From Fibrobacter succinogenes (GTDB lineage: Bacteria; Fibrobacterota; Fibrobacteria; Fibrobacterales; Fibrobacteraceae), in assembly GCA_902756345.1 (NCBI GenBank), contig CACVQR010000015.1:1-54994 (forward strand): DNA of 54,994 nt. Reading direction: 5' to 3'. The position numbers and the translations under genes are program-made. Below are positions 5,557-24,692 of this stretch, in pieces. The notes beneath the pieces were generated by a model that worked only from the letters and a program-made list of their open reading frames with translations, was not told the DNA's origin and did no database searches. The number at the start of each line of letters is the position of its first letter. Position 1 is the stretch's first letter.

Positions 5557-5575
5557 AAAAATGCTAAGCATTTTT
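5557..5575. promoter_or_regulatory. Perfect palindrome upstream of the 735-aa gene
   Basis: AAAAATGCT-A-AGCATTTTT lies immediately upstream of a -7-like TATATTAT (5575-5582) and would sit between the -33 and -7 regions, an operator position. A similar half, CTTAGCATTTTT, recurs just after the gene's stop codon (7793-7804). Confidence 0.4.
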
Positions 5576-5587
5576 ATATTATCAAGT

Positions 5588-8360: not shown

Positions 8361-8367
8361 TATGCGA

Positions 8368-9710: not shown

Positions 9711-9720
9711 AAAATAAAGG

Positions 9721-9752
9721 CCGCCGGCATAAAAGCCGGCGGTTCTTTTTTT
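9721..9752 (+). terminator. Terminator of the PIN-FISUMP operon
   Basis: CCGCCGGC (9721-9728) pairs with GCCGGCGG (9735-9742), followed by TTCTTTTTTT. On the minus strand the facing A-rich tail (RC of 9711-9719) can also stop transcription coming out of the LRAT gene. Confidence 0.85.
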
Positions 9753-9803
9753 ATGGAAGGCACAATTCTTGAATCTGCATGAAAGAGGATGCATTAGGAT
9801 AGA

Positions 9804-10322
9804 CTACGGCATAATTGAGTCTATCCATGAATTGACTTGCCGACTTTCAGCGACATTCGTTTTGCACCATATCGCAAAGTTTTCGCAATTGTTTACTAAA
9901 AAATTATATTCGTCTCCGTCAATTCCTTTTTTTCCTATCAGCATTCTCGCCCTTTCAACAGTTTGTTGAGGCGATTGGAGTTGATATTCGTCTTTATGCA
10001 CTATATAACGAAGAAAACTGCCGCACTCATATTTTTTGGGGAAATCCATAATATAGACCGTATTGCCATCCGCAAAGTCCTCTATTGTTGTTTCATGGAT
10101 ATCTGCTTCAGAGCCAATATCACGTGGAGCGAAGTGAATGACTTTTCCCGATCCAATATAAATTCCAAAATGCTTATATGCGGAAATATAACGCCTGCAA
10201 AAAATTACATCTCCATAGCTAGGAGTTCCTGAGCATTCGTGAATATACTCATAAAGTATTTTATTCTTTAAAACTCGAGGTGCGGGAAGTGAATGAATAA
10301 ATCGTTTAAGAAGAAAGTTCAT
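9804..10322 (-). CDS. LRAT-fold (NlpC/P60 superfamily) protein
   Basis: A 172-aa protein with the LRAT signature: HFGIYIGSGKVIHFAP supplies His51 and His63, and NNCENFAIWC supplies Cys146, in the circularly permuted papain order His...Cys. The family includes lecithin:retinol acyltransferase, HRASLS phospholipases/acyltransferases and many bacterial proteins acting on lipids or amides. No signal peptide or membrane helix is seen, so it is probably cytoplasmic. AGGAAA precedes the ATG. It is the last gene of the 12-gene GTPase/FISUMP operon, 21 nt after a FISUMP gene. A lipid-acting effector role is an inference. Confidence 0.75.
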   Translation of the reverse strand: MNFLLKRFIHSLPAPRVLKNKILYEYIHECSGTPSYGDVIFCRRYISAYKHFGIYIGSGKVIHFAPRDIGSEADIHETTIEDFADGNTVYIMDFPKKYECGSFLRYIVHKDEYQLQSPQQTVERARMLIGKKGIDGDEYNFLVNNCENFAIWCKTNVAESRQVNSWIDSIMP

Positions 10323-10343
10323 TTTTTGATTTCCTATAAATAA

Positions 10344-11237
10344 TCAAACATCTTTTACATAACGAATGCAATTTACAGAATCTGCTTCTGTTCGCATAAA
10401 TTGAATTTCATCAGATTCGTCATCTAAAGAAAAACATAAGCGGGGTAATTTGGATTCTCCAGAATCACCTTTCAACCAAAAATTAATAGCTTGACTTCCA
10501 TCATCCATTTTAAGGGGAATGGCATTAAAACCAAATAAATCTAATCCATTTTTCCACTTACTGGTCGATTTTAAAGCGGCTCCAGTTTTATTAGTGACCC
10601 CCTTTATTTCACAGATAAGGTCTTGAAAATCCGCTATAGTCGGTAAACGCCAACCTTGAGGAGCGCAGCGCACCGCTTTTTCATATGAAGCGAGTTCAAC
10701 GAGTTTGCCTCCACATGCGGATTTGGATTTTGGAATACCGAAAATACCAAATTTTATTTCCCACTGGAGTGCCCCTGGACCAACCCACTCATTACCCATA
10801 ACAAAAAAATTCTCAGCCATCCAAATAGTGTTTCCGATTCGACAGGTCTTGTATGTTTTATCCTTATAGATGAATTCGCCTAATTCTTTCTGACTTTCAA
10901 ATTGGTTAATTTGAGGAAATGCAAATATCTCAGCAAATGCCGATATGACATCATAGGCGGAATCCGGCAGCATTTGAGCATTAATTAAATCTTGGTAGCA
11001 ATTCTTTAAGATTTGTTCTTGTTGATTTTCACTAGAAGCGAAATCTGATGCGGCCCTTTTTGCATTGTATATTTTTTGCGGAATTCCCTTGATATTTGCA
11101 AACGCAAGAATATCATTTGCAATAGACTTTCTTTGCCCTAAAGCTTTACGTAATCGCAATGTATTTTCATTTGAAAAGATTTCTTCGTCGAAATCCGCTA
11201 TAAGATTTTGTAAAACCTTTTTGAGTTGCTGTATCAA
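10344..11237 (-). CDS. FISUMP paralog h (helical module + FISUMP)
   Basis: 297 aa. Residues 1-110 are a diverged copy of the shared helical module (IFSNENTLRLRKALGQ, ANIKGIPQKIY). Residues about 125-297 are FISUMP (YKTCRIGNTIWMAENF, QGWRLPTIADF, LDLFGFNAIP, NCIRYVKDV). No ATG is available in frame: the coding frame opens at a TTG (11237) preceded by GAGGAAA, or possibly an ATT further upstream right after a stop codon. This suggests the N-terminus was trimmed. No zinc ribbon. It is the eighth and last FISUMP gene of the operon and the most divergent. Confidence 0.8.
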   Translation of the reverse strand: MIQQLKKVLQNLIADFDEEIFSNENTLRLRKALGQRKSIANDILAFANIKGIPQKIYNAKRAASDFASSENQQEQILKNCYQDLINAQMLPDSAYDVISAFAEIFAFPQINQFESQKELGEFIYKDKTYKTCRIGNTIWMAENFFVMGNEWVGPGALQWEIKFGIFGIPKSKSACGGKLVELASYEKAVRCAPQGWRLPTIADFQDLICEIKGVTNKTGAALKSTSKWKNGLDLFGFNAIPLKMDDGSQAINFWLKGDSGESKLPRLCFSLDDESDEIQFMRTEADSVNCIRYVKDV

Positions 11238-11284
11238 TTCTAATATTTCCTCTACATCAATGGCTTAGTTTTTTCAACATTTGA

Positions 11285-12316
11285 TTATTCCTCTTCAGCA
11301 TCTTTTACGTAGCGAATGCAGGCGTAAGAGTCGTATTTCATATCTTCAAATATGTAATTATCGGTGCTAAGAATGGAAAAAGCTCTGTATGCCGTTTTCC
11401 CGCTTTCTGAAAGCCAAAATCTTGTCATTAAAGAACCATCAGATTGACGTTGCGTTGGGAATGCACTAAATCCAAAGTCGTCCGTTCCTTTTTTTCCGGA
11501 GCCATGCCATTGTGATTCTGACTTTAACGATACAGCAACATCAAGATTTTGGGACTTAATAAAATCCATCATGTCATGGATATCTTCTTCTGTTGGAAGC
11601 CGCCAACCTTGTGGAATGGTAATGTACGATGATTGAGTGGGATTAGAATCATAACTGTGTCGGTACAATTTACCGTATTTGGGGTTGATACATTCCTCTG
11701 CATCAACTCCATAAATTGGAAAATCAAGATTTTTGGCCAGCCAAATTTGATTGCCAATTCTGCAAGTTGGAAAATCAAATTCTGTCTGTGGTTCATCCTT
11801 GCCGCTCCAAGAAGATCGACTAATGTCAACCTTTATTTTTACAGTATCAAGCTCCTTTTTTTTGAAAGAGTTGTCTTCGAATTCAGCAAAAATGCCCATC
11901 ACATGCGTAAGCCAAGAAATAGTTTCTTTCGCAAATTCCTGTGGCAAACCGAAAGAAGTCATTTCGTTAAGACAGAAATCCGCCATTTGCTGCTGCTCAT
12001 TTTGCGGTTGATCTAGTACTGAATAAAGCTTTTGCGGAACGTTCTTGATGTTGGCTACGAGCAATTTGTCGCGAGCCACATCAAAGGGCGCCTCCAGCTT
12101 AACCAGAGATTTTGTAAAACGCGAACTATTCTCTTCGCTGAAGATTTCAAGCCCACCAAAATCATCAGCGAATTTTTTCAGCTCGGCTTCAATTGTTCCT
12201 GCTTCAATAGGCGGCAAAATCTTTGGAAAAAATGTTCCACAATATGGACATGCGACAAATTCCTTGAGTATGCTTTCGTCGAAGAGGAGTTCTTTATTGC
12301 ATTTTTGGCATTTCAT
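11285..12316 (-). CDS. FISUMP paralog g (zinc ribbon + helical module + FISUMP)
   Basis: 343 aa. Residues 1-30 form a zinc ribbon CQKC...CPYC. Residues about 40-140 are the helical module (FGGLEIFSEENSSRFTKSLV, NVPQKLYSV). After a linker, residues about 180-343 are FISUMP (FPTCRIGNQIWLAKNL, GKLYRHSYDS, QGWRLPTEEDIHDMM, DDFGFSAFP, ACIRYVKDA). AAAGGAG precedes the ATG. The gap to gene f is 17 nt. Cytoplasmic by sequence. The ribbon and helical module are typical of adaptor parts, the FISUMP part of a ligand-facing head. Confidence 0.88.
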   Translation of the reverse strand: MKCQKCNKELLFDESILKEFVACPYCGTFFPKILPPIEAGTIEAELKKFADDFGGLEIFSEENSSRFTKSLVKLEAPFDVARDKLLVANIKNVPQKLYSVLDQPQNEQQQMADFCLNEMTSFGLPQEFAKETISWLTHVMGIFAEFEDNSFKKKELDTVKIKVDISRSSWSGKDEPQTEFDFPTCRIGNQIWLAKNLDFPIYGVDAEECINPKYGKLYRHSYDSNPTQSSYITIPQGWRLPTEEDIHDMMDFIKSQNLDVAVSLKSESQWHGSGKKGTDDFGFSAFPTQRQSDGSLMTRFWLSESGKTAYRAFSILSTDNYIFEDMKYDSYACIRYVKDAEEE

Positions 12317-12333
12317 TGGAAATCTCCTTTTAA

Positions 12334-13398
12334 TTATTCAGCATCCTTCACAAAACGAACGCAGCCAAATTTATTCCGATAATTCACTATATCTTCATAT
12401 TGGAAATTATCACTATCCGCATCAAGAGTTACTAAAGAATAATTGTGCGATTCAGAATATCCCGCACCTTTTATTCTTACATCAATACCCCTATCCGCCC
12501 AAAATGAAACTTTTGTGACGCCATCGTCACCCCGAGCAGCAGGGTATGCCTCAAAACCAAACAAATCTATCCCTTTGCCGCCACGGCCATGCCATAGCTT
12601 TGGACTTTTCAGGGCTTCTCCAACAGTCAACCCCAAAGATATAATGTATTCTTCCAAATTCTTAAAATCCTCAATTGTTGGAAGCCTCCATCCTTCATTA
12701 GGAAAGTGAAGTTCACTAAAGAACCACGGTCCTTTGAATATTGACCCTGACAATGGATTTATAGCATCATGTTGTTCATAGTGATACGGATCAAACGTAT
12801 TGCAATCCAGGAATATGTTTTTTGAAGCCCATATTAGATCGTTAATAAAGCATGTGTTTATTGGGGCGCATTCAAACAATTTTTCTCTACCAAAGAGATT
12901 TGGCGCTTTTATGATTACGGGTTCCCCCATCCTCTTTTCCACAATAGGTTTTTGTTCCAACGTAACTGAAAAATTCATTAGTTGAGCAAGCCAAGAAATA
13001 ATTTCGTCAATAAGCTTCTTTTGCAAACCAAAAGCAAGTAATTCTTCTACGCAGGAACCAACGACCTGCTGCTTTTCTTTTTGCGGCAACTCTATCACGG
13101 AATACATTTTTTGCGGAACCTTTTTGATATTAGCAACAAAAAGCTTATTTCGTTCTTCCGCAAATTTGGAATCAATCGCTGTTAAAGCTCTACTAAACCG
13201 TGAATAATTTTCTTCGCTAAGAATCTCTAATCCACCGAATTCATTGACAATACGTTTCAATTCGGTATCTATAGAAACATCAGAATCATGAGATTCTCCT
13301 GCTTGAGAAAGCGGCTTTCCGCAAAACGGACATTTTATGAATTTTTCAAGAACTTCTTCAGGAAAGTTCAGTTCTTGATTGCATTGAGGGCAGTTCAT
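12334..13398 (-). CDS. FISUMP paralog f (zinc ribbon + helical module + FISUMP)
   Basis: 354 aa, same order as gene g. Zinc ribbon CPQC...CPFC (residues 3-25). Helical module with FGGLEILSEENYSRFSRAL and KVPQKMYSV. FISUMP with a 10-residue-longer loop before EGWRLPTIEDFKNLEEYI, then IDLFGFEAYPAARG and CVRFVKDA. The ribbon and module are closest to gene d, as expected if the pair e-f arose by duplication of the pair c-d. GGAGATCATT precedes the ATG; 18 nt separate it from gene e. Confidence 0.88.
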   Translation of the reverse strand: MNCPQCNQELNFPEEVLEKFIKCPFCGKPLSQAGESHDSDVSIDTELKRIVNEFGGLEILSEENYSRFSRALTAIDSKFAEERNKLFVANIKKVPQKMYSVIELPQKEKQQVVGSCVEELLAFGLQKKLIDEIISWLAQLMNFSVTLEQKPIVEKRMGEPVIIKAPNLFGREKLFECAPINTCFINDLIWASKNIFLDCNTFDPYHYEQHDAINPLSGSIFKGPWFFSELHFPNEGWRLPTIEDFKNLEEYIISLGLTVGEALKSPKLWHGRGGKGIDLFGFEAYPAARGDDGVTKVSFWADRGIDVRIKGAGYSESHNYSLVTLDADSDNFQYEDIVNYRNKFGCVRFVKDAE

Positions 13399-13416
13399 AA
13401 TGATCTCCTTGAAATT

Positions 13417-14520
13417 TTATTCAGCATCCTTCACAAAACGGACGCAGGCAAAGCCAAAAGGTAAATCTGGGTCTAACCCACTTGGACCTGAAATTTTTCC
13501 ATTGTCCAAATCAATCGTATTTTTCGCAGAATCAATGGTTACTACGTAAGCCATATCACCCTCGATATATGGATCATCAACATAATCCGTATTGGTCCAA
13601 AATTGTACACAAGGAAAGTGTGATACTATAGATAAATCTATATTTTCATTTCCGATTTTTATTTGAGCATTCTCTTTCTTCCAAATCGAATTCCGCGGAT
13701 ACATTTTTTCTTTTTTGGGGAGATTATCATCCCATTTTTTCAATGGGTGTGCCGCAAAGCCAAAAAGATCTAGTCCAGGATCGGCGTCGCCGCTCCAGTC
13801 CCCGTTTGACTTGAGCGCAGTCCCAGCATCAAATCCTAAAGATTTAACGTATGAAACTAAGTTTAGCCAGTCTTCTATAATTGGCAGACGCCAACCTTCG
13901 TAATCCTCATCTCTTTTGATACGAACTGCCATTTTTCTTCTTGAAACGTTTCCTTTAAAGCAGTCGTCATAATAAAAATTTTGAGCTTCTCCATGTGTAT
14001 AAAGTCGCCCATACTTATTGCCAGGAACAGCGATTCCTATAGTATCGCTATTCCACCGGAAATGCGAAGCCCGGAGATTTTCGGCCATCCAAATTTGATT
14101 ACCAATTTTACAGGTTTTATACGAGTCACCCGCTATTTCTGCTTCGCCCAAGACCTTCTCTATTTCAGGTTCTTTTGTTGTAGAACCTTTAAGTTTTAGT
14201 ACATTTATAAAGCCCGTGGCAACATCTTCTACAATTTGCGAAGTTAATCCCAAAGAAGATAATTCCTTGAGACTATTGTCTATCATTTTTTGCTGCGCTT
14301 TGGTCGGAAAATCTATGACAGAATATAGTTTTTGTGGAATACTTTCTATACATGCAACCTGCATCCACTTTTTTTCTTGCGAGAAAGAATCCGCTAATGA
14401 TTTTACGGCTTTGTTGAGACGAGATTCATTTTCTTCATCGAAGATTTCAATTCCGCCAAAATCCTGAACCAGTTTTTTCAAAAAACTATCAAAAGCGCTT
14501 GTATTAGGCTTTTTTTTCAT
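13417..14520 (-). CDS. FISUMP paralog e (helical module + FISUMP)
   Basis: 367 aa from the ATG at 14520, chosen because AAGGAG stands 7 nt upstream; a start at 14541 would overlap gene d and has no RBS. There is no zinc ribbon. The helical module (FGGIEIFDEENESRLNKAV, ACIESIPQKLYSVI) is nearly identical to that of gene c, whereas the FISUMP half (YKTCKIGNQIWMAENLRASH, LDLFGFAAHPLKKW, GFACVRFVKDA) shows different insertions around the variable region. It therefore points to recent duplication followed by head divergence. Confidence 0.88.
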   Translation of the reverse strand: MKKKPNTSAFDSFLKKLVQDFGGIEIFDEENESRLNKAVKSLADSFSQEKKWMQVACIESIPQKLYSVIDFPTKAQQKMIDNSLKELSSLGLTSQIVEDVATGFINVLKLKGSTTKEPEIEKVLGEAEIAGDSYKTCKIGNQIWMAENLRASHFRWNSDTIGIAVPGNKYGRLYTHGEAQNFYYDDCFKGNVSRRKMAVRIKRDEDYEGWRLPIIEDWLNLVSYVKSLGFDAGTALKSNGDWSGDADPGLDLFGFAAHPLKKWDDNLPKKEKMYPRNSIWKKENAQIKIGNENIDLSIVSHFPCVQFWTNTDYVDDPYIEGDMAYVVTIDSAKNTIDLDNGKISGPSGLDPDLPFGFACVRFVKDAE

Positions 14521-14537
14521 AATTTTTCTCCTTGATA

Positions 14538-15596
14538 TCAATCAACATCTTTTACATAGCGGACACAAGCACGGTATCCAGGATCTGCTTTAAACGATAG
14601 ATTTAAATTATTGCTATTTGCAGATAATAAGACACAATAGTTAGGATTATCAAATTCTTTGTTACCCGCCTCTGTTGAAGTCCAAAACCAAGCTTGAGCT
14701 TCACCGGTTTTAGAATCTCTTATTGTCGGATAGGCACAAAACCCAAATAGGTCTAATCCTGAATCCGCATTGCCATGCCATTGATTGGTTGATTTTAAAG
14801 CTGTTCCGGCATCATATTCCGAATTTTTTATATGAGCAACCAAGTCTTCAAAATCTTCAAGAGTCGGCAATCGCCAACCTTCAGGAGTATTTGCAATTGC
14901 TTCAGATAGAGTATATAATCTTCCATAATTTTTATTGGAACAACATTCGCCTATATTATTAAGTCTACCAAGGCGATATGGATCTTTCCCAGGATTACTG
15001 TCGAGATTCTCTGCAAACCATTCTTTATTACTTATGATGCAAGTTTTGTATTGATAATGATATTCGTTTGTCTCATAATGATGGGTTCGGTCAAAACCTT
15101 TTACTTCATAATCGAACATCCCCATTTTCTTCTCAATTATTTTACACTTTTTTTCTAGAGATATTTTCAAGGTATTTGCTAACCAGCTTACAACTTCATC
15201 GGCAATGTTTTCTTGCAAACCAAATGAAAGCAAGTTCTGTCGGCATTCATCTGCAGTTTTCTGTTGTTCTATTTTCGGTGCATTTATTGTGTTATACAGC
15301 TTTTGCGGAATATTTCGGACATTTGCTAAAATCAAGCGATCCCTTTCGTCAGCCAGATCGTTATCTATGGTTATCAATGCTCTATGCAGTCGGGAGCCAT
15401 TTTCTTCAGAAAATATTTCTAATCCTCCAAACTCTTCTGCAATATTCTTAAGTATTGTTTCTATCGGAGTTAAAGGATTCTCCTCATTCTCTGTTTGTTC
15501 CTCTTGTAGGAAGCCTCCGCAAAACGGGCAACTGGAGAAGGTTTTCAAAATATCTTCAGGGAAATTCAGTTCCTTATTACATTTAGGGCAGTTCAT
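14538..15596 (-). CDS. FISUMP paralog d (zinc ribbon + helical module + FISUMP)
   Basis: 352 aa from the ATG at 15596, which has AAGGAG upstream; a longer reading to 15623 would overlap gene c. Zinc ribbon CPKC...CPFC, helical module (FGGLEIFSEENGSRLHRAL, NVRNIPQKLYNTI), then FISUMP (YKTCIISNKEWFAENLDS, GRLYTLSEAI, EGWRLPTLEDFEDLV, AWFWTSTEAG, ACVRYVKDV). The FISUMP half resembles genes a and b, while the N-terminal half resembles gene f, giving a mosaic. Mid-operon, 17 nt from its neighbours. Confidence 0.88.
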   Translation of the reverse strand: MNCPKCNKELNFPEDILKTFSSCPFCGGFLQEEQTENEENPLTPIETILKNIAEEFGGLEIFSEENGSRLHRALITIDNDLADERDRLILANVRNIPQKLYNTINAPKIEQQKTADECRQNLLSFGLQENIADEVVSWLANTLKISLEKKCKIIEKKMGMFDYEVKGFDRTHHYETNEYHYQYKTCIISNKEWFAENLDSNPGKDPYRLGRLNNIGECCSNKNYGRLYTLSEAIANTPEGWRLPTLEDFEDLVAHIKNSEYDAGTALKSTNQWHGNADSGLDLFGFCAYPTIRDSKTGEAQAWFWTSTEAGNKEFDNPNYCVLLSANSNNLNLSFKADPGYRACVRYVKDVD

Positions 15597-15612
15597 AACT
15601 ATCTCCTTGAAA

Positions 15613-16773
15613 TCAATCTGCATCTTTTACATACCGGACACAAGCAAAACCAAAAGGAGGTGTACTATATGTTCCTCCTGTTGATGAAAGTTTTCCTTTA
15701 TCCAAATCAAGCGTGTTTTTTGAGGGATCTAATGTTGCTACATAAGCCATGTCATCTGCATAATCTACCCGTGGATTATCAACATATTTTGTGCTAGTCC
15801 AAAATTGGACACACGGAAACACAGGCGTACTCATTTCTACAAAAGTGTTATGTTGATTAATAATGCCATTTTCTTCATCAAGTTTTTTCTGTTTCTCTGA
15901 TTTTATTCTATTATCTTCCTTTTGCCATTCTTTATAAGCATAATCGATAGAATCTTTTAAATTTTCCCACACATTAAAACCATTCCATATTGTTATATCG
16001 TCTAGTGATTTTAGTTCCTGCTTTTGCGGAAGATTGTCGTCCCAATATTTAATTGGATGCGCAGCAAAGCCAAAAAGATCAAGTCCGGGGTCAGCATCAC
16101 CACTCCAATCGCCCTTCGATTTGAGTGCAGTTCCCACATCAAACCCTAGTGATTCAATGTAAGAAACCATCTTTAACCAATCCTCCATTGTAGGTAAACG
16201 CCAACTATCATTCAAAGACATCTGAGCATCGCGATAAGTATAAAGACGACCATATTTATTTCCGGGAACGGCAAGACCTATGCTTTCGTACGCACCAAAA
16301 TACCCTGGAGGAAGTCTTGCCAATCTAAAATTTTCCGCCATCCAAATTTGATTACCAATTTTACAGGTTTTATAGGTATCTCCCACTATGTCAGCTTCGC
16401 CTAAAACTTTCTCTATTTCGGGTTCTTTTTTAGTAGAGCCTTTAAGTTTCAATACACTTATAAAGCCCGTGACAACATCTTCCACAACTTGTGACGTCAA
16501 TCCCAAGGAAGATAATTCCTTGAGACAATTATCAATCATTCGTTGTTGTGCTTCTGGCGGAAATTCTATGACAGAATATAATTTTTGAGGGATACTCTCT
16601 ATGCACGCAACCTGCATCCATTTTTTTTCTTGCGAGAAAGAATCTGCCAATGATTTCACAGCCTTATTAAGACGGGATTCATTTTCCTCATCAAAGATTT
16701 CTAATCCACCAAAATCCTGAACGAGAGCGTTCAAAAAGATTTCAAAAGTATTTGATTCGTTCTCTATTGTCAT
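15613..16773 (-). CDS. FISUMP paralog c (helical module + FISUMP)
   Basis: 386 aa, no zinc ribbon. The helical module (FGGLEIFDEENESRLNKAV, ACIESIPQKLYSVI) is almost the same as in gene e. FISUMP begins YKTCKIGNQIWMAENF and ends FACVRYVKDAD. An insertion of about 60 charged, helical residues (IDYAYKEWQKEDNRIKSEKQ) sits inside the domain between the GFAAHP and VQFWTSTKY segments, a loop position in this fold. AAGGAG precedes the ATG. 14 nt separate it from gene b. Confidence 0.88.
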   Translation of the reverse strand: MTIENESNTFEIFLNALVQDFGGLEIFDEENESRLNKAVKSLADSFSQEKKWMQVACIESIPQKLYSVIEFPPEAQQRMIDNCLKELSSLGLTSQVVEDVVTGFISVLKLKGSTKKEPEIEKVLGEADIVGDTYKTCKIGNQIWMAENFRLARLPPGYFGAYESIGLAVPGNKYGRLYTYRDAQMSLNDSWRLPTMEDWLKMVSYIESLGFDVGTALKSKGDWSGDADPGLDLFGFAAHPIKYWDDNLPQKQELKSLDDITIWNGFNVWENLKDSIDYAYKEWQKEDNRIKSEKQKKLDEENGIINQHNTFVEMSTPVFPCVQFWTSTKYVDNPRVDYADDMAYVATLDPSKNTLDLDKGKLSSTGGTYSTPPFGFACVRYVKDAD

Positions 16774-16787
16774 AAAAGCTCCTTCTG

Positions 16788-17738
16788 CTATTTAATATCC
16801 CTTACGTAACGGACACAGGCATAATAGCCATTTCCAGCTCGGCCTTGTAAATCAACATTGTTACTATTTTCATTTATGCTTATACAAAAGTGAGGATATG
16901 TTCCATCACCTGTTTCTGAAGAAGTCCAAAACCAAGCCTGACCTTCTCCCGTTTTAGAATCATTTATAGTAGGATAAGCACAAAAACCAAACAGATCAGC
17001 CCCCGATCCGGCCGACCCCAACCAATGTTCTGTAGATTTCAAAGCCATTCCCGTATCTAATTCAAAAGACTGTATATATGCAATCAATTCCTGATAATCT
17101 TCTATTGTTGGGAGCCGCCAACCCTGGGGAGCATTCTTTACCGCCTCATGCCAATCATAGAGTCGTCCAAATTCCACCTTAGTACTTTTATTTCCAATAG
17201 AATTGGTATAATCGTCATGGTTTTGATTTCGTCCATAATCTTGATGAAAATTTTCTGCAAACCACTCTAAATGTCCTATAATACAAGTTTTATACTGATA
17301 CTCTTTTTGAATCCATTCTTTTTCCCAACTATAGTCTGATTTCTTATACCTTATTACCACACTTTCTTCTTTTAACTGTTTTTCAATTACAGTTTTTTTT
17401 CTTACGACTGCATTAATACCCAAAATAGACATATAACTCTGAACTATGTTTTCACATACATCTTCATCTAAAGTCAACGATATCAAAGCATCCCGACACG
17501 TCTCTACCATTACCTGCTTTTCACTTTGCGTAGAATCCATTACCGCATACAATTTTTGCGGGATTCGCTTCATATTAGCAATCAGAAGCCAATCTTTCTC
17601 TGGTTCAAAAGATTCATCTAAAGCCATCAAGGCTTTATTTAGCCGAGAATGATTTTCTTCACAGAAGATTTCAGCACCGCCAAAATCATCAACAAGGTCT
17701 TTTAAAATTTTATCAAAAGAATTTGATTCCATCGACAT
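16788..17738 (-). CDS. FISUMP paralog b (helical module + FISUMP)
   Basis: 316 aa, no zinc ribbon. Module: FGGAEIFCEENHSRLNKALM, ANMKRIPQKLYAV. FISUMP: YKTCIIGHLEWFAENFHQ, FGRLYDWHEAV, QGWRLPTIEDYQELI, AWFWTSSETG, YACVRYVRDI. No clear Shine-Dalgarno precedes the ATG; a second ATG follows two codons later. Closely related to gene a along the whole length, so a and b form the older duplicated pair at the head of the array. Confidence 0.87.
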   Translation of the reverse strand: MSMESNSFDKILKDLVDDFGGAEIFCEENHSRLNKALMALDESFEPEKDWLLIANMKRIPQKLYAVMDSTQSEKQVMVETCRDALISLTLDEDVCENIVQSYMSILGINAVVRKKTVIEKQLKEESVVIRYKKSDYSWEKEWIQKEYQYKTCIIGHLEWFAENFHQDYGRNQNHDDYTNSIGNKSTKVEFGRLYDWHEAVKNAPQGWRLPTIEDYQELIAYIQSFELDTGMALKSTEHWLGSAGSGADLFGFCAYPTINDSKTGEGQAWFWTSSETGDGTYPHFCISINENSNNVDLQGRAGNGYYACVRYVRDIK

Positions 17739-17763
17739 AGAAATTTCTATTTCATGTTACCTA

Positions 17764-18723
17764 TTATACATCCTTCACGTAGCGAATACTAGCATGATAG
17801 TCGTCTGTGGCTTTGCCACGCAAGATAACTTCATTGCGATTTGCACTTAAGCAAACACAATAGTGCGGATATTCTTTATCACCTGTTTCTGAAGCTGTCC
17901 AAAACCAAGCCTGAGATTCACCTGTTTCAGAATCTCTCGCTGTAGGGTATGCACAAAAGCCGAACAGATCAAGTCCTGGATCCGCTTCACCATGCCATTG
18001 CTTCTTCGATTTAAGAGCTGATCCTGCATCGTATCGAAGTGACTCAATATAGGCAACCATATCTTGAAAATCTTCTATAGTCGGGAGTCGCCAACCATCT
18101 GGGACACAATCACAAGCTTCTTTCCATGTATAAAGACGGCCATACTTCTGATTATCCGTATCCTTTCCTATGTTTTTTCCATAGGCACTTGCCGAAAGAG
18201 CATTACTAAACAAGGATAACATATTTGTAAAATCATCGGCTCCTTTCGTCCTTTTCCTATTACACCAATAAGTATTACCGCAACTAAAGTTTTCAGCAAA
18301 CCATATCTTATCACCTATCTGACAAGTCTTATATTCATGGTCCGCATAATTAAATGATCCTATTACTGGCTCCACTTCAACATTCTTCTTTACATTAGCA
18401 TTTATATCCAATACCGACATATAGCGATATACTGTTTTCTCGCACACTTCTTCGTTTAAGGTAAGTAAAGACAACACATCTCGACAATGCTCAACCACCT
18501 TTTGTTTAGTACTTTGCGAGGAATCCTTTACAGCATACAATGATTGTGGTATATTTTCCATATTTGCAATAAGCAACCAAGATCTTTCAAGTGAAGGTTC
18601 TAGCGCCATCAAAGCCTTGTTTAGCCTTGAATAGTTTTCTTCACTAAAAATTTCAATTCCACCATACTCTGATACAATTTGAAACAACGGGTCTTGTTTT
18701 TTTATTTTCTTTTTAGTAGCCAT
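17764..18723 (-). CDS. FISUMP paralog a (helical module + FISUMP)
   Basis: 319 aa, first FISUMP gene of the array, starting 2 nt after the stop codon of the GTPase-SUMF1 gene (AAAGGG upstream), so translation is probably coupled. N-terminus MATKKKIKKQ, then the helical module (YGGIEIFSEENYSRLNKALM, ANMENIPQSLYAV) and FISUMP (YKTCQIGDKIWFAENF, GRLYTWKEAC, DGWRLPTIEDFQDMV, AWFWTASETG, ASIRYVKDV). The tight coupling is the best sequence evidence that the FISUMP proteins work with the GTPases. Confidence 0.89.
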   Translation of the reverse strand: MATKKKIKKQDPLFQIVSEYGGIEIFSEENYSRLNKALMALEPSLERSWLLIANMENIPQSLYAVKDSSQSTKQKVVEHCRDVLSLLTLNEEVCEKTVYRYMSVLDINANVKKNVEVEPVIGSFNYADHEYKTCQIGDKIWFAENFSCGNTYWCNRKRTKGADDFTNMLSLFSNALSASAYGKNIGKDTDNQKYGRLYTWKEACDCVPDGWRLPTIEDFQDMVAYIESLRYDAGSALKSKKQWHGEADPGLDLFGFCAYPTARDSETGESQAWFWTASETGDKEYPHYCVCLSANRNEVILRGKATDDYHASIRYVKDV

Positions 18724-18725
18724 AC

Positions 18726-20735
18726 TTACCCTTTTTTCACAACTCTAAATCCAATGGGCTGCGAAGTATCATCTTCTTCGGCCATGTTTCTTGCAAATAC
18801 CGTGCAGCTGTTTTCGGAGCTCTTAAACGAACCACCGCGAATCACGCGTTCATCGCCGCTGGAGGGACCGTGCGGATTTTTCTGGACATCCTTAGAATAG
18901 TCGTCCCAGAAATCGTTAGTCCATTCATAGACGTTTCCGAGCATGTCATAAAGACCGAAATCATTCTCTTCTTTGCGAGCGACTGGTTGGATGGTTTCAG
19001 AGGAATTTCCCTTGTACCACGCACAGTTTTGCAAAGGCTTTTCAGCAAAGGAGCTTGCTGCATATTCCCATTCTGCTTCTGTTGGCAAGCGGTATCCATT
19101 GGCAGAGAAATCGCAGGAGCCGTTTTTGCCATAACAAGCCTTCAATCCTTCCATTTTACTCAACTTATTGCAATATTCCATTGCATCTGCAAAAGATACA
19201 TTGTGAACCGGTAGAAGGTCGCCTTTGAATTTGGACGGATTTCCCTCACCCATTACCGACTTCCACTCTGCTTGAGTGACAAGCGTAATCTTCATATAGA
19301 AAGAATCAACTGATACAGAATGCGCAGGTTTTGAATCTCTTGGACCATTATCGGATCCCATGGTAAATGTTCCTGCGGGTATATTGACATAAGCGTCGTC
19401 TGCGGAATCTTCAAAATCCTTGAAAATTTCCTTTACGACTTCTTCCATTTTTGAGGCAATTGTTGAAATAGTATCCTTATTCGTCTTGTATTTTTCAACA
19501 TCCTTTTCCAAGTCGGCTTTTAATCTGGAAATGTTCTTTGTGATTAAAGCAATGGACTCTGTTCCAATTTCATCTTTCTTCTCGGCTTTACCTCCCCGAC
19601 GAATTGCTTCGCGTCGAGCCTCTGCAGCTTCCCGGCTAAACTTGGATTCAACATTATCCATAAGAGACTTAAAATGCAGTAAAATCTGATTTAAGGTCTT
19701 TATTTTTTCGGTAGTCGCCTGAATGCGGTTTGCATCGGCATTTATATGCTTATTAAAAAGCTTCTTGAGGCGTTTCTGCAGTTCCTTTTTCTTGTCGGTA
19801 TTTTGGCAGTTTAATTCACTTATTATCGCATCCAGGTTCTTTTTTCGATAACCATATTCTTTGTGTTTCTTTGCACTATAGGCAATTACTCCTTCGTATG
19901 GAATATCATTATCTTCTAAAGTATCAGTAACCTGATCCAAAATGTCTTCACGTGCTTCTTCGGATCTGTCATCTGCTTTATTACATATCACAATGATTTT
20001 TTTGTCAGGCGCAGTTTTCAAGACGTCTTGTAGGAATTCCACATCAGAATTATTCAACGTTCCATCACTATCCACACCCACAAACCAAAATAAGACTTTA
20101 GCTTGCTTGATGAACATTAGCGATGTTTCATAGTCATGATTTGTAAACGAGTCTTTTGTGGCACTGGAATTGTAACCCGGAGTATCAATAAAGCAAATAT
20201 GTTCATATTCTTGCGGCATCTTGGCGTGAATCACGACGGAAGGCATCAAATCTTTCAGGTTGAAACCGAAAGACTTAAGTAAGTTGTGGTTCATCTGTTT
20301 GTAGGCATCTGCACCGAGTTCAACCACTCCTCCTGCAGATGTCAAACCAAAAGCGTTTGGAGCTTTATCGCCACTGATGACGTAAGCGGGGATTGCCGTT
20401 TCGGCTTCAATGCTCACAGGAAGCTGAATTTCTTTTGTACTAAAGATATGGTTGCAGAAAGTTGATTTGCCACTGCTGAATCCACCCGCAAGCACAATGG
20501 TGTTCTTGCTATAGACATCCTTATTGTGGATGAATGTTTCAAGACTTCTACGAATATCTTGCAGTTCAAGCAATGCTTCAGCCTCTTCGGGGAGGGCGTC
20601 ATCCACTTTGGCATATTCGATGTAGTCCTTATCCATCAACTGCTGAAATTTACTTAAAGCATCGTCAGCTGTTGGCCTTGCAGCCAAAAGTCGGGAAACA
20701 AGATCAAATTTTCCTTCCAAGTCGTTTAACTGCAT
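18726..20735 (-). CDS. Dynamin-like GTPase fused to a SUMF1/FGE-type domain
   Basis: 669 aa. GTPase domain with G1 GGFSSGKS (84-91), G3 DTPG (184-187) and G4 NKAD (252-255), all intact. A helical stalk with coiled-coil character spans about 300-440. Residues about 448-669 are a SUMF1/formylglycine-generating-enzyme-type domain (NIPAGTFTMGS, GYRLPTEAEWEYAA, GLYDMLGNVYEWT, RGGSF, IGFRVVKKG). Bacterial dynamin-like proteins remodel membranes. The SUMF1 part shares the GYRLPT..EW core with FISUMP, so it is likely a binding head rather than an enzyme. TAATG coupling with the upstream GTPase gene. Confidence 0.88.
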   Translation of the reverse strand: MQLNDLEGKFDLVSRLLAARPTADDALSKFQQLMDKDYIEYAKVDDALPEEAEALLELQDIRRSLETFIHNKDVYSKNTIVLAGGFSSGKSTFCNHIFSTKEIQLPVSIEAETAIPAYVISGDKAPNAFGLTSAGGVVELGADAYKQMNHNLLKSFGFNLKDLMPSVVIHAKMPQEYEHICFIDTPGYNSSATKDSFTNHDYETSLMFIKQAKVLFWFVGVDSDGTLNNSDVEFLQDVLKTAPDKKIIVICNKADDRSEEAREDILDQVTDTLEDNDIPYEGVIAYSAKKHKEYGYRKKNLDAIISELNCQNTDKKKELQKRLKKLFNKHINADANRIQATTEKIKTLNQILLHFKSLMDNVESKFSREAAEARREAIRRGGKAEKKDEIGTESIALITKNISRLKADLEKDVEKYKTNKDTISTIASKMEEVVKEIFKDFEDSADDAYVNIPAGTFTMGSDNGPRDSKPAHSVSVDSFYMKITLVTQAEWKSVMGEGNPSKFKGDLLPVHNVSFADAMEYCNKLSKMEGLKACYGKNGSCDFSANGYRLPTEAEWEYAASSFAEKPLQNCAWYKGNSSETIQPVARKEENDFGLYDMLGNVYEWTNDFWDDYSKDVQKNPHGPSSGDERVIRGGSFKSSENSCTVFARNMAEEDDTSQPIGFRVVKKG

Positions 20736-22960
20736 TAGGCAATGGCCTCCAACTCCTTAATAATCTTTTCATACAGACTAACGGACTGTTCTTTGTTTTG
20801 AATATCGTGGATAAGCTTGTCCAAGTCTTTACGATACTTTTCCAAGAACTTTGATGCCAAATCCGCTTTCTTGATGGCGTTTGTGTAACGTGCGATTTCA
20901 TCAATCAGCAGGCTACTCATATTATTTGCAAGCCCATTAAGATAGGAACGGCAAACGGCGAGCAAATGGTCGCCGGCAGCGTCTTCCTTGGCTCCAGATT
21001 CACGAAGCTCTTTCGGGAGCGCGTCCTCAGGCAATTTGAAATCGGGAATATTCAGACTTTCAATGATGGCGTTGATTTTGACGGCAACGGCATCTTCATC
21101 CATGTTCTGTTCCGCCGCTTTTGTTGCCCATACAATCGCAACCTTGGATGAAATTTTGCGTTTCAACTGCGCAAGCTCATACAAAATTTCATTTTTGAGG
21201 TTATTGTTTACCTTTCCTGTATAATCTTCAACAGCGGCTCTGAGCTGAACCGGATTTACGCGAGTATGTTGGGTAGTGTATTCATGGTAATCTTTAAAAA
21301 TCCATCCTGTCGTGTATGAGTGATGTCTAGTAAATTCAGTTCTTGCATTTTTGGTTTCGCTCTTTGCATCAGCCTGCAAATTGCTCACAAACGACATCAT
21401 TTCTTTTGTTGTTTCAGAACGCCAATCGTCAACAGCGTTGGTAACCGCATTTGAGATTCCCGCTTCAACCTTCATGCAGAAGGTTTCGATGGAATTCTTT
21501 TCATTTTGCAAGCTATCAATGTTGCCGATTTTAATTCGGCCAATCTGCTGTTTTACCGCATTTTCCATTCCCTGTTTTAAATCTTCTGCGGCGTTTTCCC
21601 AAGAGGTGCAAATCTTATTCGCGCTATCGGCCAGTATTTCATATTTCTTTTGCTTGACGATTTCAATTTTTGATTCAATGACGTCGATATTGCCAAGACG
21701 TTTCAGTGACGCTTTGGACGTTGCCTCATCTTTATCGGAAAAGTAATCTCTAAAGTTCTCGCAAAGATTTTTCCAAATGGTTTTCTTGTCTTCGTCCCAA
21801 GAGCTTTTGTTGGCAAATGTCAAGAACATGGACTCACAATCGCCAGAAGTCAAGATGACACGGCCTCCATCGTCATGGATCAGTTGGTCAAAAGCCCCAC
21901 TTTCGTTGCAAGTCATGAGGACAGAACGAGCTTGCCGTGAAAGCCTGCTTGCGATATCGCTACATACATCTTCTAGGGACATATCAGAGTATTCATCACC
22001 CAAAAGCTGGTAGTCCACTTGGCTTGCAACGACAAATAGTTCTCGAAGTCCGTCTTTAACAGTAACCTTTTCAAGAACATCTTTGTCGCTAGCGTCTAAA
22101 AAACGTCCAGCTTGGCTAAGAATCAGGACAACATCGCTCACTTTTAAGAGCTGGTAGGCGCGTTCTTCTCGCGAGGGAACCGGATCATTGAATCCCGGAG
22201 TATCAACAATGCGGAGGCCCTTCAGTTTTTCATTGGGATAAGCAATTTCGACACTCTGCGTAAAAGGCATGTACTTGCCTTCGGAACCGACATAGTCGGC
22301 AAGCATTGTAGATATCTCTTCAATGGAACCTGGATAGAGATCCTTCTCTCGGCCTGCAACTTCGTTTTGCGAGATGGGGGACGCTTTTATTTTTTGGTAT
22401 TGATCAAATGCGCCAGAAAGCCCTATATCTTCACGCAGAACACTTTTGGCTTCGCGGGTGGCCCTTTCACGGGCCTTGGCTTCGTCAAAGATAACGTTGG
22501 CAAGTCCACCCGCTTTGGCTTCGGCCTTTTTTCGAGCCTTTTCAAAAAGTTCGGCTTCGAGTTTGCGAAATTTATTTTCATATGCATCGCTTTTTTCCTT
22601 GAGCTTTATAATGTCTCCTTGCTCAAAGAATCGTACAGTCACTTTCAGTTTATCGGAATAGGACAATATGGTCAATGCTGCGGTCATGGGCGTCGCCGCT
22701 TTGGGCAATATTGTAGATCCGCCAAAAAGCAATGCGTTTAACAATGAAGATTTTCCCGCTTTCACGCGACCTACAATTCCTATCTGCAAATCACGATTGG
22801 CATTGATCTGTCTTTCATATTCTTCACGAAGAAATGATTCCTGTTTTAATTCACCGCTCTTATTTAAGAAAGCATCATTCAAAACATCTTTATGCTTATT
22901 TGCTAAAGTTTCTAAAGCATTGCGCTTTGCAATAATTTTGTCAAGACGTTCAATAGACAT
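20735..22960 (-). CDS. Dynamin-like GTPase, second gene of the operon
   Basis: 741 aa. G1 GRVKAGKS (64-71), a possible switch I Thr near 90-93, an inserted charged helix (about 120-175), G3 DTPG (253-256). The G4 position reads ASQVD (312-316) instead of NKxD, so base recognition may be altered. The C-terminal half is long helical/coiled coil without a clear transmembrane helix. Dynamin-like proteins often act as tandem pairs of unlike subunits, which fits the three adjacent genes. It overlaps the downstream gene by one base (TAATG), and starts 13 nt after the previous gene with AAGGAG. Confidence 0.87.
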   Translation of the reverse strand: MSIERLDKIIAKRNALETLANKHKDVLNDAFLNKSGELKQESFLREEYERQINANRDLQIGIVGRVKAGKSSLLNALLFGGSTILPKAATPMTAALTILSYSDKLKVTVRFFEQGDIIKLKEKSDAYENKFRKLEAELFEKARKKAEAKAGGLANVIFDEAKARERATREAKSVLREDIGLSGAFDQYQKIKASPISQNEVAGREKDLYPGSIEEISTMLADYVGSEGKYMPFTQSVEIAYPNEKLKGLRIVDTPGFNDPVPSREERAYQLLKVSDVVLILSQAGRFLDASDKDVLEKVTVKDGLRELFVVASQVDYQLLGDEYSDMSLEDVCSDIASRLSRQARSVLMTCNESGAFDQLIHDDGGRVILTSGDCESMFLTFANKSSWDEDKKTIWKNLCENFRDYFSDKDEATSKASLKRLGNIDVIESKIEIVKQKKYEILADSANKICTSWENAAEDLKQGMENAVKQQIGRIKIGNIDSLQNEKNSIETFCMKVEAGISNAVTNAVDDWRSETTKEMMSFVSNLQADAKSETKNARTEFTRHHSYTTGWIFKDYHEYTTQHTRVNPVQLRAAVEDYTGKVNNNLKNEILYELAQLKRKISSKVAIVWATKAAEQNMDEDAVAVKINAIIESLNIPDFKLPEDALPKELRESGAKEDAAGDHLLAVCRSYLNGLANNMSSLLIDEIARYTNAIKKADLASKFLEKYRKDLDKLIHDIQNKEQSVSLYEKIIKELEAIA

Positions 22961-22973
22961 TATGTGCTCCTTA

Positions 22974-24692
22974 TTAAATTTTATTTTTTATCTGATTAAG
23001 TTCAACTTTTGCAGATTCCAACTTTTGCATTTTTTCAACAACATCAGCGTTATTTTCAAGAGTTTCATTCGCTTTTTGAATACTAGCTACAAGACTATTG
23101 ATACGTTCATTGAACTGTTCAGAAATAGCATTGATAGCGGCTTCATTTTGCGCTTTTAATTCTGGTTCAAGTTTGCTACGCAAATCACGTTTCAATCGAG
23201 GTATTGCATTCAAAATTTGCGAGCGAATATTTTCACGTTGTTCTTGTTCCTGATTTCTTTTGGATATATAGCTAGTAATAGCACTGATAATTTCAGGCAG
23301 GAGAAGAATTACTATTTCTGCAAGAGGACATATTATATCAGTTGCAATGGCAACAGCGCCAACAACAGTCTTATATGCTGTTTGCAAGCCTGCTTTTGAT
23401 GCAGCTTTCTGCGCGACATTCGCCATATTGTTAAAAGCAACCTTTGCCATATCTCCCAACTGCGATGCAGCAACACCAATCTTAGCTACAAATTCGGGAT
23501 TGTCTAACAAACTGAAAGTATTTTGGTATGCTCGTAGTTCCATTTGAAAATTGGTTGATATTTTCTCCGTAATTCCCTTTGTCACATCATTAACCGCAGG
23601 TATTACGGCAGATTTAACAATGGCATTCATTTCCTGGGAAATAGCATCACCACCGGCACCATGCATTGCCATATCAATCAATTGATCTAAGTCTGCATGA
23701 ATAGCATTTCCCGCAGCAGAAGTAATGGCATCAATATCGTCCTCAAAATGGCTATTCTTTGCTTCTGCTATCATTCTATCACGCTTTCTTTGGAGTTTAT
23801 CAAGAGCCTCTTGCATATCACGAATAGCACTCTTGTTCTTCTCTCGATCTATCTTGAGAGCAGCAATTTTCGTAGCCACTATGGAATTCAATTCATCAAC
23901 TACTTGAAGTATAGCGTCCTTGAATACTTTGCTGAAAAGTTGTTCAGGATCAATAGAGTCGATGAGTTTTTTTAATTCTGCCCCAGCATCCCTATAGAGA
24001 GGCTTTACTTCTACGGATTCACCAAGAATGTCTTCCACTTGATCTTGAACCTCTTGGCATATATCTTTTACACTCTGCTCACTTAGTAGGTTTGCCTTGC
24101 TGACAAAGAACGAACAGGTGCGTCCCATACTTTGGATATCTTGAATTTGCCGCTTCATTGAAGCAGTAACTGTCCCACTCTTCGCATCTGTTAGAATCAC
24201 ATAATGAACCCCTCGATTTAAGTAGCTCGCGATAGCCTTGTTGTGGTCATCGCGTGGGGAATCGAAACCCGGCATATCAACCATAACCATTGGCTCAATT
24301 TTTTTGAGATTTTCGGAATTGAGATAGAGCCTTATGCAACGCCAATCCTTTTCAACTTTGCCTATGCCTTCAATAGAAATGCGTTTGTAGTCAAATGATT
24401 CTCCCTTCTCTACGACAATTTCGGCATACTCCTCCATAGAATAGCGCAGTTCTGTCGCCCTTGCTGTTTCAGGATTTGGAGAAACAGATAACAATGAACG
24501 TCCAATAAACGAATTTAGGAAAGAGCTTTTACCGGCGCTGAATTCTCCAACTACGGGAACCAAGAGCTCGCGATCTTTTATTGTTTGCTTTAAAGACTCT
24601 GCATTTTCAGTGGAGCATTCTACGCTTGCTGCGATTTTAATAATTTCATCGACAATACGGATGTATTGTTCTTTCGTTTTCAAAGTGACCAT
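22974..24692 (-). CDS. Dynamin-family GTPase with hydrophobic C-terminal segment, first gene of the operon
   Basis: 572 aa. G1 GEFSAGKS (49-56), G3 DMPG (139-142), G4 position SKAN (198-201) instead of NKxD. Coiled-coil segments surround a hydrophobic stretch at about 425-470 (AVAIATDIICPLAEIVILLL) that could be the membrane-inserting paddle of bacterial dynamin-like proteins. AAGGAG precedes the ATG. It opens the 12-gene operon. Likely partner of the next two GTPases. Family assignment is secure, cellular role is not. Confidence 0.88.
   Translation of the reverse strand: MVTLKTKEQYIRIVDEIIKIAASVECSTENAESLKQTIKDRELLVPVVGEFSAGKSSFLNSFIGRSLLSVSPNPETARATELRYSMEEYAEIVVEKGESFDYKRISIEGIGKVEKDWRCIRLYLNSENLKKIEPMVMVDMPGFDSPRDDHNKAIASYLNRGVHYVILTDAKSGTVTASMKRQIQDIQSMGRTCSFFVSKANLLSEQSVKDICQEVQDQVEDILGESVEVKPLYRDAGAELKKLIDSIDPEQLFSKVFKDAILQVVDELNSIVATKIAALKIDREKNKSAIRDMQEALDKLQRKRDRMIAEAKNSHFEDDIDAITSAAGNAIHADLDQLIDMAMHGAGGDAISQEMNAIVKSAVIPAVNDVTKGITEKISTNFQMELRAYQNTFSLLDNPEFVAKIGVAASQLGDMAKVAFNNMANVAQKAASKAGLQTAYKTVVGAVAIATDIICPLAEIVILLLPEIISAITSYISKRNQEQEQRENIRSQILNAIPRLKRDLRSKLEPELKAQNEAAINAISEQFNERINSLVASIQKANETLENNADVVEKMQKLESAKVELNQIKNKI

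What the first reader, a model, noticed from the sequence alone, without database searches (positions are those of the whole stretch)
10344..18723. Tandem FISUMP array built by duplicating two-gene units, with constant N-terminal modules and diverging heads
Genes c and e have nearly identical helical modules but clearly different FISUMP halves. Genes d and f share the zinc ribbon and module, while the FISUMP half of d resembles a and b. The pattern (no ribbon, ribbon) occurs twice (c-d, e-f), suggesting duplication of a pair plus recombination. This resembles constant/variable organisation in recognition repertoires. No reverse transcriptase or template repeat was seen, so diversification would be by duplication and gene conversion.
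Basis: partly seen in the sequence, partly recalled or inferred. Interest (0 to 1): 0.8.

Follow-up and report, generated by a model that had tools for sequence, protein, structure and literature searches.

The report
Dynamin operon with swappable adaptor heads
A gut/rumen bacterium (Fibrobacter) carries a 12-gene operon in which three membrane-shaping GTPases are followed by eight related intracellular proteins that keep one docking domain and swap their binding domain by recombination, which looks like a recognition kit (perhaps against viruses) built without any known diversity-generating machinery.

Summary
The eight-gene FISUMP array is real (10344-18723, minus strand). It is the tail of a 12-gene operon (9804-24692) that starts with three dynamin-like GTPases, the third ending in an FGE (C-type-lectin-fold) domain. 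Each array protein has no signal peptide and consists of an optional zinc ribbon (d, f, g), a ~105-residue helical module found here only in Fibrobacterota genomes, and a FISUMP head.

In the orthologous locus of Fibrobacter RUG831, gene g's counterpart is 88% identical in DNA up to codon 141 (end of the last module helix) and only 47% beyond. Elsewhere the same module carries a CFI-box head, a BspA-type LRR head, or no head.

Three genes, not two, have the ribbon. c and e are sisters in both halves and adjacent in RUG831. Their modules look alike through purifying selection (silent sites nearly saturated), not gene conversion. No reverse transcriptase is in the genome.

I infer a dynamin-linked intracellular recognition repertoire, probably for anti-phage conflict. 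No function was tested.

The parts
22974..24692 (-). dynamin-like GTPase 1 (572 aa), first gene of the operon; 75% identical to its RUG831 counterpart
   Evidence: PF00350 1.5e-18; weak PADLOC LeoA 4.3e-07; synteny
20735..22960 (-). dynamin-like GTPase 2 (741 aa); 87% identical in RUG831, 53-60% in UBA1765, MAG72 and F. intestinalis
   Evidence: PF00350 3.7e-19; LeoBC 2e-13
18726..20735 (-). dynamin-like GTPase 3 fused to a C-terminal FGE-sulfatase (C-type-lectin-fold) domain (669 aa)
   Evidence: PF00350 8e-11 and PF03781 6e-46; the whole fusion in only 4 of 80 genus genomes
17764..18723 (-). array gene a: helical module (about 18352-18702) + FISUMP (17767-18339), no ribbon
16788..17738 (-). 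array gene b: helical module (about 17364-17720) + FISUMP (16791-17300), no ribbon
15613..16773 (-). array gene c: helical module (about 16393-16749) + FISUMP with long insert (15616-16380), no ribbon
14538..15596 (-). array gene d (start moved to 15596): zinc ribbon + module (about 15114-15467) + FISUMP of a/b type (14541-15056)
13417..14520 (-). array gene e (start moved to 14520): module (about 14140-14496) + FISUMP of c type (13420-14127); ortholog of RUG831 x4 (86%)
12334..13398 (-). array gene f: zinc ribbon + module (about 12919-13275) + strongly diverged FISUMP (12337-12867; below the family cut-off)
11285..12316 (-). array gene g: zinc ribbon + module (about 11840-12196) + FISUMP (11288-11779); head differs completely from the RUG831 ortholog x6
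10344..11237 (-). array gene h: diverged module (about 10872-11228) + FISUMP (10347-10859); ortholog of RUG831 x7 (81%)
9804..10322 (-). LRAT / NlpC-P60-like protein (172 aa), last gene of the operon; also last in the RUG831 operon (48% identical)
   Evidence: PF04970 8.9e-21
9719..9744 (.). strong two-way terminator-like hairpin just after the operon
   Evidence: 10-pair stem with T tail on +, 8-GC-pair stem on - (such scans are not proof)

Best explanation
A single operon makes three dynamin-like GTPases and a set of cytoplasmic adaptor proteins. Shown: the adaptors share a helical module (often with a zinc ribbon) and differ in their C-terminal FISUMP head, which has a C-type-lectin/FGE-like predicted fold. 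Shown: heads have been replaced while the module stayed, with a junction at the end of the module's last helix, and the heads belong to a module-linked pool distinct from the other ~100 FISUMP domains of the genome. Inferred: the module (with the ribbon) docks each protein onto the dynamin assembly or onto sister proteins; the heads bind different ligands, mainly through the variable loop after the WxAEN motif; ligand binding by any head triggers or directs dynamin action at a membrane. Inferred, weaker: the purpose is conflict with phages or other invaders, with head exchange and gene gain or loss renewing the repertoire in place of a DGR.
For: Operon structure with 2-47 nt gaps (one 1-nt overlap) and ribosome-binding sites; dynamins and FGE domain. 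Same order (dynamin 1-2-3, adaptors, LRAT) in RUG831. Module-bearing genes follow the dynamins in MAG72, UBA1765 and F. intestinalis. Head swap at g/x6, change point codon 141; predicted last module helix is residues 126-140. d: module and head trees disagree. The module also carries a CFI-box head in RUG831 x5 (5.7e-14), an LRR head in a genome of another family, or none. Nearest relatives of the g and f heads among 80 genus genomes are module-linked FISUMPs (for g, up to 92 bits; best other 65). FISUMP fold: best aligned PDB chains are CarF, PorK, PvdO, FGE and C-type lectins, Z 5-7.7. Loop 1: pN 0.22 against 0.06 in the rest of the domain with similar pS. Conflict hints: whole dynamin-FGE fusion in 4 of 80 genus genomes; JAB/E2/E1 genes upstream in UBA1765, IetA-like AAA and ZorA-like genes downstream in F. 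intestinalis; WCX-like regulator homologs near several loci. Known precedent: FGE/C-type-lectin domains as variable parts of conflict systems (PMC7159879) and a dynamin that limits phage infection in B. subtilis (PMC8844932 abstract).
Against: No ligand, interaction or phage phenotype is known. The module is not found in the dynamins, so docking to them is a guess. dN/dS is below 0.3 in the ortholog comparisons, so no positive selection is shown. Only one recent head swap is documented, from two genomes. PADLOC matches of the dynamins are weak. A FISUMP protein with the same module exists in G039 without dynamins on its 8.2-kb contig, and many Fibrobacter genomes carry a lone ribbon-module-FISUMP gene with no dynamin beside it. 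The fold match is moderate (Z under 8).
Confidence: 0.42

Rival explanations
1. Cargo or assembly adaptors: the FISUMP proteins are housekeeping cargo receptors for a LeoABC-like dynamin that buds or remodels membranes (vesicles, polysaccharide or enzyme export). Different heads fit different host proteins, and there is no immune role.
For: LeoABC dynamins promote vesicle release in E. coli (PMC4159319). Fibrobacter has many FISUMP proteins inferred to be extracytoplasmic and possibly cohesin-like (PMC4704652). Heads are under purifying selection.
Against: The operon is patchy (4 of 80 genus genomes), unlike a housekeeping function, and a head is replaced wholesale at an orthologous gene. Defence-type neighbours in distant relatives.
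Confidence: 0.25
2. Ordinary paralog expansion: old tandem duplicates drifting apart, heads tolerating more change than the module because they are less constrained. The one swap is an ordinary homologous recombination event of no special role.
For: c/e modules are alike by constraint rather than conversion. e/x4 diverge equally in both halves (87% and 87% DNA identity). h/x7 heads are more conserved than modules.
Against: Sharp module/head boundary in g/x6, discordance of d, and independent head types on the same module in other genomes show modular exchange beyond drift.
Confidence: 0.25
3. One reading: duplication of a two-gene unit (no-ribbon, ribbon) plus gene conversion that keeps the modules constant.
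For: c/e modules are 86% identical. d and f share the first ~24 codons at 86% DNA identity.
Against: Three ribbon genes; c and e counterparts adjacent in RUG831; d/f pairing rejected in heads; silent sites in c/e modules nearly saturated; 55 orthology sites against 15 homogenisation sites.
Confidence: 0.05
4. Array diversified by a diversity-generating retroelement (DGR), as for other FISUMP/DUF1566 proteins.
For: Fib_succ_major domains are listed among DGR targets in human microbiomes (PMC4159848).
Against: No RVT_1 match in the genome, 99.2% complete. Variation includes large insertions and whole-head replacement, and maps to the loop after WxAEN rather than to a 3' repeat.
Confidence: 0.02

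Closest known systems
Effector-associated-domain (EAD) conflict systems and other constant-module/variable-module systems (Kaur et al. 2020, PMC7159879)
   Same: Small all-helical, non-enzymatic module repeated in adjacent genes and fused to interchangeable domains, including a C-type-lectin-fold domain; NTPase core; a Ubl/JAB system next to one relative (UBA1765).
   Different: The core is a dynamin trio, a type the paper does not mention (0 uses of 'dynamin'). No copy of the module is found in a core protein. The module has no Pfam match.
DGR variable proteins with FISUMP / DUF1566 / FGE (C-type lectin) domains (PMC4159848, PMC10907252)
   Same: Same head families and fold, variable ligand-binding-type domain at the C-terminus.
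   Different: No reverse transcriptase; variation is by whole-head exchange, loop indels and gene gain or loss. The proteins look cytoplasmic, whereas the FISUMP DGR target described in PMC4159848 is a predicted lipoprotein.
LeoABC and paired bacterial dynamins (PMC4159319)
   Same: Several tandem dynamin-like genes in one operon; weak profile matches to LeoA and LeoBC.
   Different: Three complete dynamins, one fused to an FGE domain, with an array of FISUMP adaptors and an LRAT-like protein.
Surface FISUMP (TIGR02145) proteins of Fibrobacter (PMC4704652)
   Same: Same domain family; 114 matches in this genome.
   Different: Array members lack signal sequences, carry a helical module and in part zinc ribbons, and are each other's nearest relatives. 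The family has been inferred to be extracytoplasmic and perhaps cohesin-like.

Membership tests
FISUMP / Fib_succ_major (TIGR02145, PF09603) | profile score over the curated cut-off | tested here: met
   7 of 8 over 41.65 bits; f scores 25.1
C-type-lectin / FGE fold | structural match of the head to solved members | tested here: inconclusive
   VIA-align Z 7.7 CarF, 6.7 PorK, 6.6 PvdO, 6.0 human FGE, 5.5 EMS16; consistent set but Z under 8, and Foldseek alone gives nothing significant
Diversity-generating retroelement target | reverse transcriptase in the genome | tested here: not met
   no RVT_1 match in 3.36 Mb, 27 contigs, 99.2% complete
Diversity-generating retroelement target | template repeat with adenine-directed substitutions at the 3' end of the gene | not tested
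   no dedicated template-repeat search was run; moot without an RT
Effector-associated domain (EAD) system | small, all-helical, non-enzymatic domain in adjacent genes fused to varied domains | tested here: met
   all-helical model, pLDDT 92-98 over the first 100 residues; fused to FISUMP, CFI-box, LRR
Effector-associated domain (EAD) system | one copy of the same domain fused to a core component | tested here: not met
   module profile finds no copy in the dynamins or other operon proteins (about 4 bits or less)
Known EAD families 1-10, Death-like, TRADD-N | profile or fold match of the module | tested here: inconclusive
   no Pfam match to the module, no PDB sequence or clear fold match; EAD profiles themselves were not available
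LeoABC dynamin system | specific match to LeoA / LeoBC | tested here: inconclusive
   best 2e-13 (LeoBC) and 4.3e-07 (LeoA), partial coverage; F. intestinalis homolog LeoA 1.2e-11
Bacterial dynamin (PF00350) | Dynamin_N GTPase domain over cut-off | tested here: met
   three proteins, 42.7-69.8 bits against a cut-off of 27
Anti-phage defence system | protection of a host against phage | not testable with these tools
   needs an experiment; only neighbourhood and distribution hints

The most novel reading that the evidence does not exclude
A dynamin-centred intracellular immune system of Fibrobacter that keeps a repertoire of C-type-lectin-fold sensors on a constant docking module and renews it by module/head recombination, without a reverse transcriptase.
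Probability: 0.3. Interest if true: 0.82.

Novelty: new variant of a known kind. Interest (0 to 1): 0.58.

Why it matters
FISUMP is highly repeated in Fibrobacter (114 matches here) and has been read as a surface or cohesin-like domain; I found no paper that gives it a tested role. This locus shows a cytoplasmic-looking use of it, tied to dynamins, with physical evidence that heads are exchanged at a domain boundary. If the inferred role is right, bacteria have a recombination-based constant/variable sensor repertoire feeding a membrane-remodelling GTPase, an alternative to DGRs for the same protein fold. It also defines an unnamed adaptor domain whose presence flags such loci, and makes the open question of what FISUMP binds directly testable, with paired proteins that share the dock and differ in the head.

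Tried and rejected
Two-gene-unit duplication and module gene conversion: rejected. DGR: rejected. Whole-domain positive selection: not found. Head donors from the genome-wide FISUMP pool: not supported. COMMD-like fold for the helical module: Foldseek ranks 2, 5 and 11 for the full g model were COMMD proteins (E 0.13 and worse), but the lead vanished when the module was modelled alone. Fold search with the module alone: best Z 5.5 to a designed protein; no family named. PDB sequence search with the module profile: nothing credible. Phage records with protein c: no match. Viral contigs with dynamin 2: no relative. Genome contigs with the module alignment: too diverged to search, so dynamin 2 was used. 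Papers naming FISUMP: none; papers with PF09603 or TIGR02145: nine, none found that links it to dynamins. Promoter scan: no excess over shuffles. AU tests were run on groups chosen after seeing identities, so their p-values are optimistic.
Full report
WHAT IS THERE. The window lies in a Fibrobacter-type genome (3.36 Mb, 27 contigs, 99.2% complete) with 114 FISUMP matches. Its nearest named relative at this locus is 'uncultured Fibrobacter sp. RUG831' (G022 in the genome search). The finding's eight genes a-h are real and form the tail of a 12-gene same-strand run: dynamin-like GTPases at 22974-24692, 20735-22960 and 18726-20735 (the last fused to an FGE-sulfatase domain), then a-h, then an LRAT/NlpC-P60-like gene at 9804-10322. 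Gaps are -1 to 47 nt, most genes have AGGAG-type sites, and a strong two-way terminator-like hairpin follows at 9719-9744. With those sites, d starts at 15596 and e at 14520.

ANATOMY OF THE ARRAY PROTEINS. None begins with a signal sequence (read from the N-termini). Each has a helical module and a FISUMP half; d, f and g also have a CxxC...CxxC ribbon. The AlphaFold model of g (mean pLDDT 86) shows ribbon 1-40, helices 42-141, a linker, and a mostly beta head 156-343. The head's best structural neighbours are FGE-type and C-type-lectin-type proteins (Z 5-7.7), which is consistent but moderate. The module alone models well (pLDDT 92-98 over the first 100 residues) and has no clear PDB relative. 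It has no Pfam match.

Split-domain identities: c/e 86% module, 63% FISUMP; a/d 38% and 60%; b/d 36% and 54%; d/f 44% and 36%; a/b 55% and 56%. So c/e is module-conserved, and d is the reverse with respect to a and b. Trees of the two halves place c and e (with their RUG831 counterparts) together in both. d's head goes with b, x2, x6, G006 and G039 (89/92), while its module is rejected from a clade with a+b (AU p=0.002). d+f is rejected for heads (p=0.027). These groups were named after inspection, so the p-values are optimistic. Three genes, not two, have ribbons, and most relatives outside the array have one too, so the alternation is better read as losses.

THE ORTHOLOGOUS LOCUS. RUG831 (L047/L090) has the same dynamins (75, 87 and 86% identical), seven array genes x1-x7, and LRAT. 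Best correspondences are e=x4 (86%), h=x7 (81%), c~x3 and g~x6; a~x1 is looser (54%). The c and e counterparts x3 and x4 are neighbours, with no d between them. x5 carries the module and a ribbon but a CFI-box-CTERM head (5.7e-14). The g/x6 pair is decisive: DNA identity is 86-94% in sliding windows across ribbon and module, falls through a short step near codons 120-140, and stays at 33-56% through the head. A single change point fits at codon 141 (88% before, 47% after; log-likelihood ratio 100 against a maximum of 10.1 in 1000 shuffles). In the model of g the last module helix is residues 126-140. In heads, g+x6 is rejected (AU p=0.011), while in modules they are sisters (98/93). This is head replacement at a domain boundary since the two genomes split. 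c/x3 and c/e show a milder step near codon 149.

NOT GENE CONVERSION. c/e modules look alike but their synonymous sites differ at 55% (dS about 1.0, dN/dS 0.07). Of 85 informative sites in c/e/x3/x4, 55 support orthology (duplication before the species split), 15 support homogenisation and 15 are crossed. A small homogenised tract between x3 and x4 around codons 100-175 is possible but weak. Ortholog comparisons with measurable dS have dN/dS under 0.3. Within FISUMP, the loop between the WxAEN and GRLY motifs has pN 0.22 against 0.06 in the rest, with similar pS (0.50 and 0.43); the N/S ratio differs with Fisher p=0.0004 on three pairs. This is the one place where diversification is suggested; the loop was picked by eye from the alignment.

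WHERE THE HEADS COME FROM. Among 80 genus genomes with thousands of FISUMP domains, the best relatives of the heads of g and f are module-linked (for g, nine module-linked heads at 67-92 bits before the first other one at 65). The heads therefore form a separate pool exchanged among module genes, not drawn from the other FISUMP proteins.

DISTRIBUTION. The module occurs in 22 of 168 phylum genomes. The full dynamin-FGE fusion occurs in 4 of 80 genus genomes, plus UBA1765 and F. intestinalis ATCC 43854 in another collection. Array sizes next to dynamins: 8 here; 7 in RUG831; 3 in MAG72, with unrelated ORFs between; 1 in G006, beside the dynamin-FGE gene only; 1 plus a headless module protein in UBA1765; a headless module protein only in F. 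intestinalis. Many Fibrobacter genomes have a lone ribbon-module-FISUMP gene away from dynamins. One genome of another family has ribbon-module-LRR (BspA-like). So the module is a general carrier of varied heads. Neighbours in distant relatives include JAB, E2-like and E1 genes (UBA1765), an IetA-like AAA and a ZorA-like gene (F. intestinalis), a VWA/kinase/phosphatase cluster (G047), and WCX-like regulator homologs near several loci.

MECHANISM. Shown: operon layout, domain anatomy, head replacement, separate head pool, patchy distribution. Inferred: docking by the module, ligand binding by the head, dynamins as the output at a membrane. Weakest inference: a role against phages. Bacterial dynamins have been tied to vesicle release (LeoABC, PMC4159319) and to phage resistance (DynA, PMC8844932 abstract), and FGE/C-type-lectin domains to variable parts of conflict systems (PMC7159879, PMC10907252). 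The cargo-adaptor reading remains open at about 0.25 and plain paralog drift at about 0.25.

NOVELTY. I found no description of dynamin plus FISUMP arrays in the held papers. The general design (constant helical module, variable domains, NTPase core) is known from EAD-type systems, but the defining EAD feature of a copy fused to a core protein was tested and not met. Hence 'new variant of a known kind'.

Noticed in passing
window 24928-25686 (+): A further FISUMP protein, transcribed divergently from the dynamin operon, begins with a CPFC zinc-knuckle-like motif and an ~80-residue N-terminal part that is not recognisably the array module; no counterpart was seen upstream of the dynamins in RUG831.
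   Followed up: partly
window 9138-9710 (+) and 8362-9120 (+): A lone FISUMP domain protein next to a protein of about 250 aa with a C-terminal treble-clef-like zinc motif (N-terminal part looks PIN-like by eye), convergent with the operon.
   Followed up: no
window 3986-4912 (+): Conserved neighbour: homologs lie beside the module locus in RUG831 (78%), near the G047 module pair (68%), and just upstream of the dynamins in UBA1765 and F. intestinalis (40-42%). Weak WCX-domain match in relatives suggests a WYL-type regulator.
   Followed up: partly
L053 (G047 contig 2): Two ribbon-module-FISUMP genes sit in a cluster with a VWA protein, a kinase and a phosphatase-like protein, reminiscent of ternary conflict systems.
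   Followed up: partly
L059:7815-9323 (-): Ribbon-module protein with BspA/PARCEL-type leucine-rich repeats as its head in a genome of another family of the phylum.
   Followed up: partly
L047:10078-10509 (+): A 143-aa orphan gene between the dynamin-FGE gene and the array in RUG831, with no family match.
   Followed up: no
L050:7614-8240 and 9275-9820 (+): In MAG72 unrelated genes (one a DUF1643 protein) are inserted between the three array genes, a sign of gene gain within arrays.
   Followed up: no
window 5561-7795 (+): A 744-aa protein with no family match above noise, downstream of the operon.
   Followed up: no
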